Shown: one piece after another, positions 2,840-61,251 of the stretch | How positions within the stretch are numbered: the first letter of the stretch is position 1 | How the letters are laid out: each line of letters opens with the position of its first letter | Source: Candidatus Gastranaerophilales bacterium | GTDB taxonomy: Bacteria; Cyanobacteriota; Vampirovibrionia; Gastranaerophilales; Gastranaerophilaceae | NCBI GenBank assembly: GCA_944324305.1 | Contig: CALUVV010000003.1 | Coordinates: 1 to 64,000 of the forward strand | Direction: 5' to 3' | Length of the DNA: 64,000 nucleotides | Translations under genes and position numbers: made by a program | The notes under the pieces: model-generated | Databases searched by the model: none | Seen by the model: the letters and a program-made list of their open reading frames with translations, nothing else | Told to the model about the DNA's origin: nothing

Positions 2840-3624
2840 ATGAAAAATCTATTTAGCTTTGAAGCTCGGGGGGGGGGCGTTTCTTAGCTCCTAAACCTGC
2901 TTTTACTTTAGCTGAGGTGTTAGTAACTTTAGGAATTATCGGTGTTGTTGCATCCCTGACCCTACCTTCTTTAATCACAAAATATCAAGACAAAGTGCTT
3001 ATTTCTGCCACGAAAAAAACATATTCAGTTATTCAAAATGCACTTTTAGCCGCACAGAATGAAGGCGGTACAATAGGGGATAATACATATTTATTTGATA
3101 CAAATCAAACGCATGTTGAATTGGCTCATAAATGTTTAAAATACTTTAATGCCGCAAAACTATGTGAAAACAGAAATTCAGCGGATTGTTCAAAGTATTT
3201 TGATATAACTTATAAATATGCCGTAAAAACAATATCAAACGGAGGCACTATAGGCCAAAAAACAGATTATCCGCGAATTTTACTTGCTGACGGAAGTGTT
3301 CTGGCTGTAAAGCAGCAGCCATCTTGTTCAAATAAATGGGAGACTTGTGAACAAGATGAGAACGGGTATTGCAAGAAAGATGAAAATGGCAATGATATAA
3401 TGATACAAGGTGGTGATGATGCTTGCGGTTATATATATTTTGATGTTAACGGTATTAAAGGTCCTAATCAATACGGACGTGATGCTTATGTTCTAAAAAT
3501 CAGAACCGATAATATTACGGGTATATATTATAATCCGACAGGTTCACAAAGTTTAAAAAACATATTATCTGGAAAAGATGAACTTATATATGAAAAATAT
3601 AATTTGGGTGAAAGCGTAAATTAA
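2840..3624 (+). CDS. Type IV pseudopilin A, switched out of frame by a G10 tract
   Basis: Prepilin-like protein for a type IV pilus or type II secretion pseudopilus. ATG 2840 has a strong Shine-Dalgarno and reads MKNLFSFEAR into a G10 run (2868-2877), then meets TAG after GVS. Eight or eleven G would give RGGRFLAPKPA joined to FTLAEVLVTLG, a 260-residue protein. PA/FTLAE is the prepilin-peptidase site, with the methylated Phe and the conserved Glu5, so the tract falls in the discarded leader. The mature part is Cys-rich and has the shared signature DVNGIKGPNQYGRDAY. Out of frame here: a contingency off state, a decayed gene or a miscounted homopolymer. Confidence 0.8.
2868..2877 (+). repeat. 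G10 homopolymer in pilin A leader
   Basis: Ten G flanked by C on both sides (C-G10-C), 25 bases after the A of the start codon. The flanks carry a short direct repeat AGCTC (before the tract and at the end of the TTCTTAGCTCC that follows it). The frame to FTLAEV opens at 8 or 11 G. Confidence 0.95.
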
Positions 3625-9579: not shown

Positions 9580-11241
9580 TTATTTGGAATAAATTGTTAT
9601 AACGTATGGAGATTCCTCTTTTGTTTCTATAAACTTCAGATTATAACTGCAGATTTCTTTTATATCCGTAAGCGATTTAATCGTCAGCAAATCGTTTAAG
9701 GATGCAGCCTGATACTGTTCGGGATTTTCAACAAGATGTTTAAATTTTTCTTTGTCAAAATCGTTAAAATTTGCGGTTGTTGTTATTATGAATTTCTGAC
9801 CGGGCTGCATGTTTGTTATTATATAATTCATTAACAACAATGTGTTGTACGGTGTATTATTTTGATAAAAATACGGCTGCAATATTTCCTTCCTTTTCTC
9901 TATGGAAAGTGAATTAAATTGTTTTTCATTTGCTGCCATAACCTCTGATTTATAGGCGAAATCCTTTAGAATACTTATAACATTTACCTTTTTGTCTAAA
10001 TATTTATCAAGTATTTCTTTTCTGTTCCAAACAAGAACGAAATCCGAATTATGAAGTTCTGATTGATTTATAAGGTTCGCAAGAGGGCGGAAGCCGTCGC
10101 GGGGAATTTTATATGCGGCGTAAGGAGAAAATAAAAGATAAACCAGATTTAATACAATAAATATTGACGGAATAATTACATTCAGCCTTTTTGCGCTTGA
10201 AATAAGAGAAAATCCGTAAGCCGTAACTATTAAAAAAGCAGGCATGGATATTGCCGCATATCTCGGAAGTATTTTAAAATTAGTGAATTTAAATGCAATA
10301 ATTTCCGCAATAAAAAATACTGCAGCAGGAGCAATAACTGCATAGGAAAATTTATCTTTTCTTAACGCTGTGTAAATTCCGAAAAATGCCGCTGCAACAG
10401 GCAGTATTATAAAAATTAATTTTGATAATGAAAATGTTGTAAAGAATAAATGCATATAATGCGGCGGGTTATTAGCAAGACTTTCGAGAACAGGAGTAAA
10501 CATGTCCTGAATTACAATAAATAAGCTTGACCAGTCGCAATAATAGCCGTTAATCTGGTTTGTGTATTTTGCCGAATTAATAAATAAAAATAAACATACA
10601 GGAACACATAATATTATGAGTGTGAATATTGCATTCCTGAGATGCTTGAGCGGCTGTTTTTGTAAGCATAGATATACCAAAACGGTAAATATTAATGCAA
10701 TAACATATATAAAAGCAATTGTATAAGTGTGTATTAACGCAAAGCATGTCAGAACAAGTGCAGCATAATTCCATCTGTTTTCCGGATTATTTTTTATTTT
10801 CACGGTAAAGAGCACAGTTAAGGAGGCCAGCAAGATTAAAAGAGAATACATTCGCACTTCTTGTGAATAATATATAAAGAAACTGTTAATTGCAAATAAT
10901 GAAGCGCATAAAATACCTGTTCGGGGGGGGGGCAACTCTTTGCCGGTATAAAATCCAACTATAATTGTTAACAGCCCGCAAAAAGCTGAAAAAGCCCTCA
11001 GCGATAAATCCGATAAACTGAATATTTTAGCCCACCAGTGCAAAAACAGCTGATACAAGGGCATGTGTACATCTGTTTTAAGAGTATAATAAAGGGTAGA
11101 CAAAGCATTTGGCTGGCTTGCCTGTTTAAAAGAAACCAGTTCGTCATAAGACAATCCTCCTGCTTTATCAAGAAAAAGCAATCTGAAAATTAATCCTGCT
11201 ATAAATATAACCGCAATTAACCAAATACTTTTATTTTTCAT
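9580..11241 (-). CDS. GT39/ArnT-like membrane glycosyltransferase carrying a C10 tract
   Basis: A polytopic membrane protein of about 553 residues with roughly a dozen hydrophobic segments. It fits the PMT_2/ArnT superfamily, which transfers sugars from a polyprenyl phosphate donor on the outer face of the inner membrane. The first loop has the acidic pair in SYDELVSFKQ and the HMPLYQLFLHWW motif; QEVRMYSL follows. The coding strand holds C10 (10923-10932 on plus), read in frame as KELPPPRTG. Any change not a multiple of three would truncate the protein at about residue 105. ATG 11241 has GGGAG five bases upstream. Acceptor unknown; pilin or surface glycan is a guess. Confidence 0.8.
   Translation of the reverse strand: MKNKSIWLIAVIFIAGLIFRLLFLDKAGGLSYDELVSFKQASQPNALSTLYYTLKTDVHMPLYQLFLHWWAKIFSLSDLSLRAFSAFCGLLTIIVGFYTGKELPPPRTGILCASLFAINSFFIYYSQEVRMYSLLILLASLTVLFTVKIKNNPENRWNYAALVLTCFALIHTYTIAFIYVIALIFTVLVYLCLQKQPLKHLRNAIFTLIILCVPVCLFLFINSAKYTNQINGYYCDWSSLFIVIQDMFTPVLESLANNPPHYMHLFFTTFSLSKLIFIILPVAAAFFGIYTALRKDKFSYAVIAPAAVFFIAEIIAFKFTNFKILPRYAAISMPAFLIVTAYGFSLISSAKRLNVIIPSIFIVLNLVYLLFSPYAAYKIPRDGFRPLANLINQSELHNSDFVLVWNRKEILDKYLDKKVNVISILKDFAYKSEVMAANEKQFNSLSIEKRKEILQPYFYQNNTPYNTLLLMNYIITNMQPGQKFIITTTANFNDFDKEKFKHLVENPEQYQAASLNDLLTIKSLTDIKEICSYNLKFIETKEESPYVITIYSK
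10923..10932 (+). repeat. G10 homopolymer inside the glycosyltransferase gene (antisense strand)
   Basis: C-G10-C on plus, C10 on the coding strand. The plus-strand sequence after it (CAACTCTTTGCC) resembles that after the pilin D tract (CAATTCTGTAGC). It is in frame at ten, the only one of the eight that is coding-competent for its gene at this length. Confidence 0.95.
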
Positions 11242-11260
11242 CACATCTCCCTCATTAAAA

Positions 11261-27808: not shown

Positions 27809-28509
27809 ATGAAGAAATTATTTAATTTTGCTACGCGGGGGGGGGGCGTACTTTAAGCTCCAATAAAGGTTTTACCCTCGCCGAGGTCCTGGTAACTTTA
27901 GGCATAATCGGCGTGGTTTCTGCGATGACCGTGCCTTCTTTGATGCAAAATCACCAGCGTAAAACTTATGTAACACAGCTTCATAAGTTTTATAACGAAC
28001 TTTCTCAAGCTTTGTTACAATATCAGACCGATAGAAACGCTTTAAATTTAAAAGAAGCCGGATTAAACAGTCAGGAAGCTTTGGATGCCTTTTTTAAGGA
28101 ATATTTTAAGGTTATAAATGATTGCGGTAATACCCAGACACCATGTCTTGCTCCCGCAAGTGAATACAAAAATATTGCAGGCAGGGCAATCGGTACGGGA
28201 TGCAACGCATATATTACAATTGCTGACGGAAATTCATTCGGGTATTCATATTCAGGCGGGACTGTGTTATTTAATCTGTATCTCGATACGAACGGGCAAA
28301 AAGGTCCTAATATTGCTGGGAGAGATATTTTTGCCGTTTATGTTTATAATAACGGATTAATTGATGATAGCGGCGGAGCAAACGGTGCGCCGTTAACCAA
28401 AGAGGAAAGGGAAGCTTCTTTTAATTCTCATTGTATTCAGTCGACAGGTACAACTTGGTACGGCTGTTTCGGTAAGATTTTAAATGATAATTGGGAAATG
28501 AATTATTAA
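27809..28509 (+). CDS. Type IV pseudopilin C, switched out of frame by a G10 tract
   Basis: Pseudopilin whose ATG reads MKKLFNFATRGGGVL and stops at TAA just after the G10 run (27837-27846). With 8 or 11 G the leader becomes RGGRTLSSNKG joined to FTLAEVLVTLGIIG, giving 232 residues. The mature domain is a close paralogue of pilin E: both have VSAMTVPSLMQNHQRKTY and a C-terminal CFG-LN-NWEM. The signature is DTNGQKGPNIAGRDIF. The leader codons are almost identical to those of pilin F, 15 kb away. Confidence 0.8.
27837..27846 (+). repeat. G10 homopolymer in pilin C leader
   Basis: ACGC-G10-CGTACTTTAAGCTCC. C-G10-C again; stop codon TAA eight bases after the tract in the present frame. Confidence 0.95.
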
Positions 28510-30017: not shown

Positions 30018-30904
30018 ATGAAAATTTTTGAAGCAGAACAGGCACATGCGTTTTGTAAATTTTGCGGCGCTTGTGTTGAAGTGTCTACGCACGTAGTACT
30101 CGGGGGGGGGGCAATTCTGTAGCTCCTGCTCATAGTTTTGAAGATTTATTCAAAATCTTTGTGCCGTGTCAAGCGGCACGCCCGGCATTTACCCTTGCGG
30201 AAGTTCTTGTAACATTAGGCATCCTTGGCGTGGTTGCAGCTGTTACTATGCCTGTACTTATAGGAGGTACAAAGCCGAAAGAACTTGAAACTCAATTTAA
30301 AGAAGCATATTCACTTCTTTCTCAGGCTGTTGTTCAGGTTGTTGATGAAAAGGGGATAGGATTAAGAAAACTGTATGCAGCATATAACGGTTCTTCATAT
30401 CCCAATGCGTCGGAAATACAAAATGCAATATACTCAAAAATGAAAGTTACGGGAGATTGTACATATAAGACTGCGGTTAAAAATTATTCAAAAACCAGTG
30501 ATAATCCCTACGTTGATTTAGGCACGGTAAAACCTGATAAGCTTCTGGCAAACGGTATGTGCTTGAATGTTACCGTTAACGGCGGAAGTATTAATCTTAC
30601 AGTTGATATAAACGGGGCGGGAAAACGTCCTAATGCTCTTGGACATGATATATTTTATTTTTATATAGATGACAATGATACTTTGCAGCCTAAAAAAATG
30701 AGTAAATTGCTGACTGACGATGAAGTTGAAGATTTGAAAGGACAAGATTATAGTGGAGTTGAGAATATTTCTTCCCAGAGTGGTCTGCCGTGTTCGGCAA
30801 AATCAAAACAACGCGGAAATGGGCTGGGATGTGCCTATTATGCTTTAGTTAATCAAAATCCGGATGATAATTCCGTAACGTTTTGGGATAATTTGCCTAA
30901 ATAA
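30018..30904 (+). CDS. Type IV pseudopilin D, switched out of frame by a G10 tract
   Basis: Pseudopilin with an unusually long leader. ATG 30018 reads MKIFEAEQAHAFCKFCGACVE to VVLGGG and stops at TAG right after the G10 run (30102-30111). With 8 or 11 G it continues NSVAPAHSFEDLFKIFVPCQAARPA to FTLAEVLVTLGILG, giving 294 residues. Here the tract is entered in a different codon register (CTC GGG) from the other pilins, yet needs the same G number modulo three. Mature part has the signature DINGAGKRPNALGHDIF. Two CxxC-like cysteines in the leader are odd. Single gene with its own promoter. Confidence 0.8.
30102..30111 (+). repeat. G10 homopolymer in pilin D leader
   Basis: GTACTC-G10-CAATTCTGTAGCTCC. 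TAG closes the present frame eight bases after the tract. Confidence 0.95.
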
Positions 30905-34834: not shown

Positions 34835-34893
34835 AATAAATGAAAGGAGCAATTTATTATGAAAAAGTTAAGAGTTTTATCACGCGTAATCTC

Positions 34894-34903
34894 GGGGGGG
34901 GGG
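34894..34903 (+). repeat. G10 homopolymer in the orphan cassette
   Basis: ATCTC-G10-CGTTTTTAGAGC. C-G10-C as at the other sites; upstream ACGCGTAATCTC resembles the ACGCACGTAGTACTC of pilin D. Confidence 0.95.
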
Positions 34904-34981
34904 CGTTTTTAGAGCTTTTCCTTTCAAAAGAATTTTTTCAACAATGGTCTAATCTGTTAATATTATTTTTTGTCAACTGTA

Positions 34982-35010
34982 TTGATAAATGTGAATTAAT
35001 ATGTCATAAT
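34982..35010 (+). promoter_or_regulatory. Sigma-70 promoter of pilin gene E
   Basis: TTGATA (34982-34987), 17 bases, CATAAT (35005-35010), then GCGGGAG before ATG 35044. Confidence 0.7.
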
Positions 35011-35043
35011 GGGAATATAATAAATAAGCGGGAGACTATTGTT

Positions 35044-35742
35044 ATGAAAAAATTGTTAGCTTTTACATTAGCGGAAGTTTTGGTTACGCTCGGAATAATC
35101 GGTGTAGTATCTGCTATGACCGTACCTTCATTAATGCAGAACCATCAGCGTAAAACTTACGTAACTCAATTGCATCAGGTTTATAATTTATTTCAGCAGG
35201 CTTTTTTGCAATATACAAATGATAAAAATGCTTTAAATCTTCATGAAGCAGGTTTAATTTCTTCTGCTGAAGTAAGTAATTTTATGAACTCCTATTTTAA
35301 AATTGTTCAGTCTTGTACTGATTTTACCGAATGTTTTTATGACGGAAGCTATAAAAATATGAGCGGTACGGATCTTACTAACGCCAGTTATTGGCCGGGA
35401 GCTTCAGCAGCACCTTGTTTTGTTCTTGCAAACGGTGCTTCCGTATGTGTTGAAAATTCCAAATATCATACAACATACGGGCACATAACAATTGATATTA
35501 ACGGTAAAAAAGGTCCTAATATTGCAGGACGTGACCTGTTCTTTGTTACATATTACAGTGACGGTTCAATCGACGAAGACGGAATACCGCCGGAATGCAG
35601 AACATCGGGTACCGGATGCGGTTCAGGTAAAACCAATCCTAAAGATGTTAGAGCTGCTGTTGGTGCAACCTGTTCTTCCCGAGGCGATGCTAAAGGCTGC
35701 TTCGGATTACTTTTAAATAATAATTGGGAAATGGATTACTAA
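35044..35742 (+). CDS. Type IV pseudopilin E (intact)
   Basis: The only pilin-like gene of the seven that is uninterrupted. Short leader MKKLLA, cleavage before FTLAEVLVTLGIIG, 232 residues. No G tract in its leader. The mature domain is a paralogue of pilin C (MTVPSLMQNHQRKTYVTQLH, C-terminal GCFGLLLNNNWEMDY) with cysteine-rich loops and the signature DINGKKGPNIAGRDLF. It may be a constitutive counterpart of the switchable pilin C. Its stop overlaps the convergent Usp gene by four bases. Start chosen from GGGAG and its own promoter. Confidence 0.9.
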   Translation: MKKLLAFTLAEVLVTLGIIGVVSAMTVPSLMQNHQRKTYVTQLHQVYNLFQQAFLQYTNDKNALNLHEAGLISSAEVSNFMNSYFKIVQSCTDFTECFYDGSYKNMSGTDLTNASYWPGASAAPCFVLANGASVCVENSKYHTTYGHITIDINGKKGPNIAGRDLFFVTYYSDGSIDEDGIPPECRTSGTGCGSGKTNPKDVRAAVGATCSSRGDAKGCFGLLLNNNWEMDY

Positions 35743-42979: not shown

Positions 42980-43785
42980 ATGAACAAATTATTTAATTTT
43001 GCCACGCGGGGGGGGGGCGCACTTTAGGCTCAGCTCCTGCGTTTACTTTAGCTGAGGTTTTGGTAACTTTAGGAATTATCGGGGTTGTTGCGGCTTTAAC
43101 TCTTCCTGTACTTATTAATCAGACGCAAAATAAAGAAATTCAAACACAATTTAAAAAACTTTATTCTGAGTTAAATCAAGCTTCACGGTTGTTTATGAAT
43201 GATTTTGGTGTTTCTGTAACAGAATATTGTCGGGATAAAGGAACTTCTTCATTTGTAAGAACTTTATTACCAAAATATTTAAAAGGGCTTAAATTGTATG
43301 ATGATACTACTTCAGGTTCACAAGATGAAGAAGGCAATGCTAAAAGTTCGGCATATCAAATGTATACTTTAGGCGGCGCAAAGTTGAGACTTGGGCCTTG
43401 CGATGATTTCGGTTATATGACTGATATTGCAGGCAGAATTTATTCATTTGAGTATAACGGCATTACGGATGAACAGCAAGGTCCTGTTGTGTGTATTGAT
43501 GTTAACGGACATAAGAGACCTAATAAATTCGGGTATGATATTTTTATATTCAGGTTTGTCGAAAACGGGCTTGTTCTTCCTATGGGACAGGAATATAAAG
43601 CAGGCGAAAGCAGTTATGGATTTGCACGTGACGGCAGCTCAAATAATTTTTTCTCCAAGAATGAGTGCAAAGTTTCGTCAGATCTTACTAATCAGCTGAC
43701 CTGTGCAAAATATGCATTAGCCGATGTACATCCCTTTGAGAAAGGTAAAAATTACTGGCAGGATTTTCTGGGCAAAAACCGTTAA
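42980..43785 (+). CDS. Type IV pseudopilin F, switched out of frame by a G10 tract
   Basis: Pseudopilin; ATG reads MNKLFNFATRGGGAL and stops at TAG after the G10 run (43008-43017). With 8 or 11 G the leader is RGGRTLGSAPA joined to FTLAEVLVTLGIIG, giving 267 residues. The first 40 bases of coding sequence are nearly identical to pilin C even at synonymous sites, but the mature domains differ. Signature DVNGHKRPNKFGYDIF. Placed directly after a truncated AsmA-like gene, which suggests insertion of the pilin unit or deletion at this point. Confidence 0.8.
43008..43017 (+). repeat. G10 homopolymer in pilin F leader
   Basis: ACGC-G10-CGCACTTTAGGCTC. C-G10-C; in-frame TAG follows eight bases later. 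Confidence 0.95.
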
Positions 43786-47005: not shown

Positions 47006-47397
47006 TTATTCTTGATTGATAAGTTTTGACAATGTGTTTTTTATAAATGTTTCCATTTCTTGCAGAATTTTATCGGATTTTTCACATACTTTACGAAAAC
47101 ATCTGTTATATTCTCTTCTGTAATAGACAATATTTTTACCGTCATCATTTACTTGCAATACTTTCTTAATACCTTGTTTGTTTTTTGTATATTCAACTAC
47201 TCCTAAAAGGTTGTCATCTGACGAATATAATCTTAAATTTTTGAAATTTCGGGGGGGGGGCAGCTAAAAGCTTGATTTCCAGCCATTTCCCGGATGCCTT
47301 TATCCAGTAATTCATTAGCGGACTTGCTTAAGATTGAGCGTTTGGCGTAGTAATATCCTGTAAAATTTGTGTAATCTGTTTTGCTTCCTGACAACAT
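47006..47397 (-). CDS. Small unknown gene disrupted by a C10 tract
   Basis: ATG 47397, with AAAGGA eight bases upstream, reads MLSGSKTDYTNFTGYYYAKRS to GNQAFSCPPP and hits TAA soon after the C10 run (47251-47260 on plus). With 8 or 11 C the frame continues RNFKNLRLYSSDDNLLGVVEYTK to LSKLINQE, a 129-residue protein. The C-terminal half is charged and helical. No family recognised. Both halves have coding-like composition, so this is a real gene either off or broken. Confidence 0.6.
47251..47260 (+). repeat. G10 homopolymer inside the small unknown gene (antisense strand)
   Basis: TTTC-G10-CAGC on plus, C10 on the coding strand. C-G10-C as elsewhere. Frame restored by 8 or 11. Confidence 0.95.
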
Positions 47398-60493: not shown

Positions 60494-61251
60494 ATGAAAA
60501 AAGTATTGAATTCCGGAATCCGGGGGGGGGGCATTCTGTAAGCCTTAGTCAGCCGGGAGCTGATGCGTCTAAGCGTCAAAATGGCTTTACTCTTGCCGAA
60601 GTATTAATTACGCTTGGCATTATAGGAATTATCTCTGCATTGACTATTCCTAATATTATTGCAAATTTTAGAGCTCAGCAGTTAAGGACTGCTTTTTTGA
60701 AGGGCTATTCCGTTATTACTCAGGCTTTTGAAATGTATCATAAAGATACGGATTGTTCGAGTACTGACTGTATTGCATCCGGTTTATTTTATCAGGAAAT
60801 CAAACCGTATTTTAAAATTTTAAAGTTATGTGAACACACTAAAGATTTGAAATCAGATGACTGTATGCCAAAAAGTACAACTGATATGAAATATCAAAAT
60901 TTTAATAAGACTTCTCGCGGTATTCAATCTTCAATGTTTGATGACGGACAATTTATCACAACTGACGGTATGCTGATAACTTTTGAGCAGCAGGCTTCCG
61001 GACGTAAATCTATTTTTATAGGTTTGGATGTGAACGGGAGAAGAAAGGCTCCTAATGTTTTAGGACAGGATTTTTTTCTTTTTCAGCTCGTAAATAAATC
61101 AGGCAGGGGATTTATATTACCTGTCGGAGCTGACGGAACTGATTATTCAACGAAAACATTTTGCTCTTTGACTTCAACATCAAGGGAAAACGGTTATGGC
61201 TGTGCTGCCAAAGCTCTTTATGAGCCTGATTTCTTTAAAAATCTTAAATGA
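60494..61251 (+). CDS. Type IV pseudopilin G, switched out of frame by a G10 tract
   Basis: Pseudopilin; ATG 60494 (GAAAGGAG upstream) reads MKKVLNSGIRGGGIL and stops at TAA after the G10 run (60522-60531). With 8 or 11 G it continues RGGHSVSLSQPGADASKRQNG to FTLAEVLITLGIIG, giving 251 residues. Signature DVNGRRKAPNVLGQDFF. Unlike A to F it shows no clear promoter of its own and lies 20 bases after the YjbQ gene, so it may be part of that operon. A terminator was not found before gpmI. Confidence 0.8.
60522..60531 (+). repeat. G10 homopolymer in pilin G leader
   Basis: AATCC-G10-CATTCTGTAAGCC. Preceded by CC rather than C; otherwise as in the other tracts. TAA ends the present frame. Confidence 0.95.

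What the first reader, a model, noticed from the sequence alone, without database searches (positions are those of the whole stretch)
10923..10932. The glycosyltransferase tract is in frame at ten when the pilins are off
In the GT39-like gene, C10 encodes Pro-Pro-Pro and keeps the frame; lengths 8 or 11 would truncate it. At the same nominal length, pilins are off and the glycosyltransferase is on. If tract lengths drift together this would couple surface glycosylation and pilin expression inversely. The tripled proline is in a loop where the family has variable residues, so the tract probably entered as a neutral insertion and then became a switch.
Basis: partly seen in the sequence, partly recalled or inferred. 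Interest (0 to 1): 0.6.

Follow-up and report, generated by a model that had tools for sequence, protein, structure and literature searches.

The report
Leading-strand ten-G motif gating pilins
The run of ten Gs in this sugar-transferase gene is one copy of a fixed twelve-base sign (C, ten Gs, C) that gut bacteria of this genus carry up to about 165 times on one strand of the chromosome, mostly at the start of pilin genes, where it leaves the gene one base short of being readable.

Summary
At 10923-10932 there is a G10 (C10 in the sense strand of a PMT_2 glycosyltransferase) encoding PPP. The gene is open at 10 and truncated to 117-135 aa at 8, 9, 11 or 12. Pilin leaders with the same tract are closed at 10 and open at 11.

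The coupling reading is not supported. The tract is one copy of a discrete element, C-G10-C. In 784 kb of this genome, leading-strand G runs number 3 at length 6, none at 7, 3 at 8, none at 9, 88 at 10 and 3 at 11; the other strand has none above 6. Polarity holds whatever the gene direction. The element is common in this Gastranaerophilales genus and nearly absent elsewhere in the phylum.

In three non-pilin genes, this one included, orthologues without the motif have the same length: it was built by substitutions, not insertion. About 80% of pilin-like genes carry it; nearly all need +1 base, in either orientation, yet evolve under purifying selection (dN/dS 0.13).

Best reading: a DNA-level, leading-strand-bound motif held at ten, used in pilin leaders as a default-off, +1-on gate. 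The switching step is inferred.

The parts
10922..10933 (+). C-G10-C element inside the glycosyltransferase gene (C10 in the sense strand, codons 105-107 PPP)
9580..11244 (-). PMT_2 (PF13231) membrane glycosyltransferase, 554 aa, open at tract length 10
   Evidence: PF13231 E 5.8e-11, over cut-off; frame test
2867..2878 (+). C-G10-C in the leader of a pilin-like gene (leader ATG about 2840, pilin part to 3624); open at 11
27836..27847 (+). C-G10-C in the leader of a pilin-like gene (to 28509); open at 11
30101..30112 (+). C-G10-C in a long leader of a pilin-like gene (to 30904); open at 11
   Evidence: TIGR02532 prepilin motif over its cut-off downstream
34893..34904 (+). C-G10-C in an upstream leader ORF of a pilin-like gene that also has its own internal start (MKKLLAFTLAEVL); the leader with the tract is replaced by a tractless, in-frame leader in G004
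43007..43018 (+). C-G10-C in the leader of a pilin-like gene (to 43785); open at 11
47250..47261 (+). C-G10-C with no clear pilin; longest ORF across it is 130 aa, antisense, open at 11
60521..60532 (+). C-G10-C in the leader of a pilin-like gene (to 61251); open at 11

Best explanation
Shown: the tract is one copy of a genus-specific 12-bp DNA motif, C-G10-C (in pilins usually followed by R, 7-10 nt and GCYYY), with a fixed length of ten, on the leading strand only, independent of gene direction. In the non-pilin genes tested, this glycosyltransferase included, it arose in place by base substitutions at an unchanged length, so the frame is kept at ten. In leaders of pilin-like genes it is placed so that exactly one extra base (11, or 8) joins start codon and pilin, whether the gene reads G10 or C10. 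Inferred: it works as a replication-linked, DNA-level two-state (10/11) element with ten as the strongly preferred state. Pilins are off by default and switched on one at a time; the glycosyltransferase is on by default because its copy evolved in frame. What holds the length at ten and ties the motif to the leading strand (a binding protein, a strand-specific slippage or repair bias, or a recombination role) is unknown.
For: Run-length spike at exactly ten on one strand, C flanks 87/88 and 88/88. One polarity per contig with a single flip on C3 near the GC-skew peak, including 15 pilin-like genes with C10 in the sense strand. Genus-restricted. Pilin leaders open in the 11 class in both orientations in several species; pilins found at 11 or 8 are on. 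Same-length substitution origin in three non-pilin genes. Tract pilins under purifying selection, dN/dS 0.13 over 16 pairs. Orthologous loci differing by one base between G000 and G004 (L063:14437, L095:8431). An intergenic copy kept at exactly ten in both species (L082:7657).
Against: No read-level evidence of 10/11 mixtures; lengths are assembly consensus. No enzyme or binding protein identified. The purifying selection could equally come from translation of the G10 form by frameshifting. Three of 16 non-pilin genes are not open at ten.
Confidence: 0.45

Rival explanations
1. Ordinary homopolymer phase variation: a slippage-prone poly-G contingency tract as in Campylobacter, Neisseria or Bifidobacterium pili, sampled when most pilins are off.
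For: Frame-gated pilin genes and a glycosyltransferase; pilins at 11 or 8 are on; one-base differences between related species; a published pilus precedent.
Against: Runs of 7 and 9 are absent and 8 and 11 rare; intergenic copies are also ten; 100% strand polarity and C flanks are not needed for slippage; sister species G002 and G006 show the expected spread of 9-15 with mixed flanks and polarity; the motif arises by substitution at constant length.
Confidence: 0.2
2. Constitutive recoding: pilins are made from G10/C10 by -1 ribosomal frameshifting or +1 transcriptional slippage, and ten is selected because only ten gives the right product level.
For: All pilins need the equivalent of one extra base; off-frame peptides usually end soon after the tract; purifying selection although both species are at ten; 9 and 12 nearly absent.
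Against: Does not explain leading-strand polarity, conserved flanks with opposite gene directions, intergenic copies at ten, or in-frame copies created by substitution in unrelated genes.
Confidence: 0.17
3. A chromosome-architecture or recombination motif (Chi-, KOPS- or AIMS-like), tolerated in genes; the pilin frame is a by-product or a secondary use.
For: Complete leading-strand polarity; evolves in place by substitution; leaders around tracts are locally replaced between species with breakpoints at the tract.
Against: Copy number ranges from 0 to 165 within one genus, unlike a housekeeping motif; about 80% of pilin-like genes carry it; the uniform pilin frame class is unexplained.
Confidence: 0.13
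4. Assembly or sequencing artefact: longer tracts collapsed to ten.
For: The G004 assembly has N gaps and misread bases next to tracts; a published warning that annotated G-tract lengths can be wrong.
Against: Runs of 11-15 are represented in the same assemblies or in sister genomes; non-pilin genes are mostly in frame at ten; ten dominates in assemblies from different sources.
Confidence: 0.03
5. One reading: glycosylation and pilin expression are inversely coupled by tract lengths drifting together, after a neutral insertion in the glycosyltransferase.
For: Opposite open classes at ten.
Against: Loci change singly, with no sign of joint drift; no insertion.
Confidence: 0.02

Closest known systems
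G-tract replication-slippage switch of sortase-dependent pili in Bifidobacterium breve (PMC9187656)
   Same: A pilin gene split by a poly-G tract whose annotated length is out of frame; a tract-length change fuses the two ORFs; a gut commensal (read).
   Different: Two clusters, ordinary length heterogeneity, -1+3n needed, Gram-positive pili; here well over a hundred prepilin-type genes are inferred, fixed ten, +1 needed, leading strand only, defined C flanks.
Poly-G contingency loci of Neisseria and Campylobacter (for example PMC5953494, PMC539331; seen as search hits, otherwise from general knowledge)
   Same: Poly-G tracts in surface and glycosyltransferase genes with frame-dependent on/off states.
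   Different: Those tracts vary in length and are not known to be bound to one replication strand; here length is nearly invariant and copies arise by substitution.
Polar leading-strand motifs: Chi, KOPS, AIMS (AIMS: PMC5993296, abstract only; the rest from general knowledge)
   Same: Oriented G-rich motif, leading-strand bias, many copies.
   Different: Usual polarity is partial; copies are not concentrated in one gene family, nor set one base out of frame; here copy number varies from 0 to 165 within a genus.
GnT mutation hotspots (PMC12344412)
   Same: G runs on the leading strand extend when followed by T, which gives a leading-strand bias.
   Different: Predicts open-ended growth through T only; it does not give exact ten, a 5' C, or A/C to G changes.
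DNA uptake sequences (DUS/USS; general knowledge)
   Same: A lineage-specific motif of about 12 bp that accumulates in place by substitution; a type IV pilus connection.
   Different: DUS/USS are far denser and occur on both strands; uptake was not testable here.

Membership tests
Homopolymer phase-variable (contingency) locus | Gene open or closed according to tract length | tested here: met
Homopolymer phase-variable (contingency) locus | Tract length varies between loci or close relatives as expected from slippage | tested here: not met
   Spike at ten with 7 and 9 absent; only a few one-base differences to G004; contrast G002/G006
Homopolymer phase-variable (contingency) locus | Reversible switching in a clonal population | not testable with these tools
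   No reads or cultures
Programmed frameshifting or transcriptional slippage | Slippery run with the product in one fixed alternative frame | tested here: met
   Nearly all pilins in the +1 class
Programmed frameshifting or transcriptional slippage | Trans-frame protein made from the G10 allele | not testable with these tools
   Needs proteomics or a reporter
Polar leading-strand motif (Chi/KOPS/AIMS-like) | Orientation bias that flips at the terminus or origin | tested here: met
   terminus inferred from GC skew only
Polar leading-strand motif (Chi/KOPS/AIMS-like) | Recognised by RecBCD/AddAB, FtsK or another factor | not testable with these tools
   No binding data
DNA uptake sequence | Present on both strands without replication polarity | tested here: not met
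   One strand only
PMT_2 / GT39-like glycosyltransferase | PF13231 match over the curated cut-off | tested here: met
   43.3 bits against a cut-off of 26.1
Prepilin-type (type IV pilin-like) protein | Prepilin N-terminal cleavage/methylation motif | tested here: inconclusive
   FTLAEVLVTLGIIGVV after the tracts; TIGR02532 over cut-off for one of four queries; PF07963 just under cut-off for two of five. Most queried ORFs began inside the motif, which weakens the scores

The most novel reading that the evidence does not exclude
A dedicated DNA-level system recognises C-G10-C on the leading strand, holds it at exactly ten and toggles single copies to eleven, giving the genus a repertoire of probably more than a hundred pilin genes that are off by default and turned on one at a time; new copies arise wherever a near match in a tolerant stretch can be turned into the motif.
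Probability: 0.3. Interest if true: 0.9.

Novelty: new variant of a known kind. Interest (0 to 1): 0.72.

Why it matters
Poly-G contingency tracts are known, but a homopolymer with a near-invariant length, fixed flanks and complete replication-strand polarity, evolving in place by substitution and leaving nearly all tract-bearing pilin genes one base short, was not found described in the papers searched. It would link replication direction to frame-based gene control, and it makes a testable claim about how a gut lineage manages a very large pilin repertoire. It also warns that automatic annotation of these genomes will miss or truncate most of their pilins.

Tried and rejected
Reverse-transcriptase-templated spread: PF00078 hits do not track motif count (G007 has 69 copies and no hit; G045 has no copy and a hit). 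Hairpin on the G strand (GGGGC...GCYYY): GCYYY is strongly enriched, but its third position is mostly T (a G.T wobble) and most non-pilin copies lack it, so this is left open. GnT hotspot alone (PMC12344412): cannot give A/C to G changes or a stop at ten. Slippage growth: runs of 7-9 nearly absent. Insertion origin: no length change against orthologues. A literature search for Gastranaerophilales with phase variation found nothing. The tally counts one locus twice (L098 = L208); one search is free of that.

Full report
Observation. The window holds eight runs of eight or more Gs; all are exactly ten, all on the + strand, all read C-G10-C, and there is no C run longer than five. Shuffled sequence gives 0.01 such motifs per window. 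The one at 10923-10932 lies in a minus-strand gene of 554 codons, a PMT_2 (PF13231) membrane glycosyltransferase. C10 encodes Pro-Pro-Pro at codons 105-107. Lengths 7, 10 and 13 keep the frame; 8 and 11 stop at 117-118 aa, 9 and 12 at 134-135 aa. The window pilins with short leaders (tracts at 2868, 27837, 43008, 60522) and the long-leader pilin at 30102 join start and pilin only with one more base.

It is a discrete element. In 784 kb of this genome oriented to the leading strand, G runs number 69 at length five, 3 at six, none at seven, 3 at eight, none at nine, 88 at ten and 3 at eleven; the other strand has none above six. The ten-runs have C before (87/88) and C after (88/88). The whole genome has 165 exact C-G10-C copies and 7 runs of eleven or more. 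In the listed part of the genome each contig has one polarity, except C3, where the sign flips between 123 and 163 kb, close to the peak of cumulative GC skew. So G10 is on the G-rich strand, taken as the leading strand; that the flip marks the terminus is inferred. Polarity does not follow gene direction: 15 of the 73 tract-bearing pilin-like genes in the sampled 0.8 Mb carry C10 in their sense strand. A weaker 3' motif, GCYYY 6-10 nt after the C, is present at 61 of 91 tracts against 3.4% of random Cs.

Distribution. Of 33 genomes of the genus, 29 have the motif, with 1 to 165 copies; four have none. C-G10-C-N6-10-GCTYY is otherwise found in only three of about 270 other genomes of the phylum sampled, one or two copies each. 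Two species of the genus, G002 and G006, instead have ordinary G tracts of 9-15 with mixed flanks and both polarities.

Frames. From a start codon with a ribosome-binding-like site, 66 pilin leaders at length ten in this genome are open in the 11 class, 64 of them only there (51 sense, 13 antisense). The same holds for most leaders in G004, G007, G044 and other loci, with one clear in-frame exception and two G004 leaders next to N gaps. Pilins at 11 or 8 are on: three at 11 and one at 8 among the 73 tract-bearing genes in the sample, one more at C2:272219 (L210), and many of the 11-runs followed by C in other species. Runs of 11 without the C are mostly substitutions or misreads that leave the overall frame unchanged. 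Non-pilin genes differ: 13 of 16 with an ORF of at least 120 aa are open at ten, two at 11 and one at 9. Some pilins also have an internal start (for example at 34894, MKKLLAFTLAEVL), so 'off' is not absolute there.

Origin in non-pilin genes. The glycosyltransferase orthologue in G004 reads CCCTCACCCC (PSP) and in G020 C10 (PPP), same length; which state is older cannot be told from three sequences. In a DPM1-like GT2 gene, five species have ordinary codons for GG[K/R/E]Q, G044 has TCG GGA GGG GGG CAG, and G000, G004 and G020 have C-G10-C at the same length, with an amino-acid change (G003 has T-G10-C). In a matrixin-like protease, about two dozen orthologues align without a gap at the site and only G000 and G004 have G-C10-G (five rows of that alignment are a wrong reading frame or gene and are ignored). 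In these two genes the motif evolved in place by substitution. Slippage, insertion and the GnT hotspot do not account for that, which points to selection or a bias acting on the DNA motif itself.

Pilins. 91 pilin-like genes were found in about 0.8 Mb; 73 have a tract, 18 do not and have short leaders. Sixteen tract-bearing orthologue pairs between G000 and G004 give dN/dS 0.13 at dS 0.41, so the proteins are used although nearly all are out of frame in both assemblies. In 13 of 14 such pairs the leader around the tract is far more diverged (22-81% identity) than the pilin itself, and in most also than the 150 bases upstream, with breakpoints at the tract.

Mechanism. Shown: fixed length, flanks, polarity, frame class, in-place origin, purifying selection. 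Inferred: a DNA-level two-state element with ten as default. A purely RNA-level explanation (frameshifting or transcriptional slippage) fits the +1 class and the selection, but not the polarity, the flanks, or an intergenic copy kept at ten in two species (L082:7657). Ordinary slippage fits the switching but not the length spectrum. Neither can be excluded without reads or expression data, hence the modest confidence.

Verdict on the finding. The opposite frames are real. They do not imply coupled drift, and there is no sign that the tract entered as an insertion. The glycosyltransferase is on at ten because its copy sits in frame in a loop of unchanged length; the pilins are off at ten because their leaders are set one base short.

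Noticed in passing
window about 30069-30101; also leaders in L062, L065, L069, L086, L087, L089: A second recurrent, partly palindromic segment (like TGTCTACGCACGTAGT) sits in many pilin leaders just before or after the tract, in both gene orientations; it may be another dispersed repeat.
   Followed up: no
G002 and G006 (L146-L175): Two species of the same genus carry ordinary variable poly-G tracts (9-15, mixed flanks, both strands), several in glycosyltransferase-like genes, instead of the fixed motif.
   Followed up: partly
own genome, about 0.8 Mb sampled: 91 pilin-like genes in about 0.8 Mb, an unusually large prepilin repertoire; 18 lack the tract and have normal short leaders.
   Followed up: partly
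L068:350, L069:10823, L083:14201, L095:8431; window 34894-35070: In some pilins the long leader reads in frame through a promoter-like stretch (TTGTAAAA...TATAATAGTGAT) and a second start codon, so two forms of the pilin may be made.
   Followed up: no
G004 (L199-L207, L404): N gaps and misread bases sit right at tracts, so assemblies of this genus break there; population mixtures or sequencing trouble after poly-G are possible causes.
   Followed up: no
L092:11842 and L092:13008: One large non-pilin gene seems to carry two C-G10-C tracts, the first in frame at ten and the second open only at eleven.
   Followed up: no
G004 / FR900471.1, FR900479.1: The public genome labelled 'Fusobacterium sp. 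CAG:439' belongs with this Gastranaerophilales genus.
   Followed up: partly
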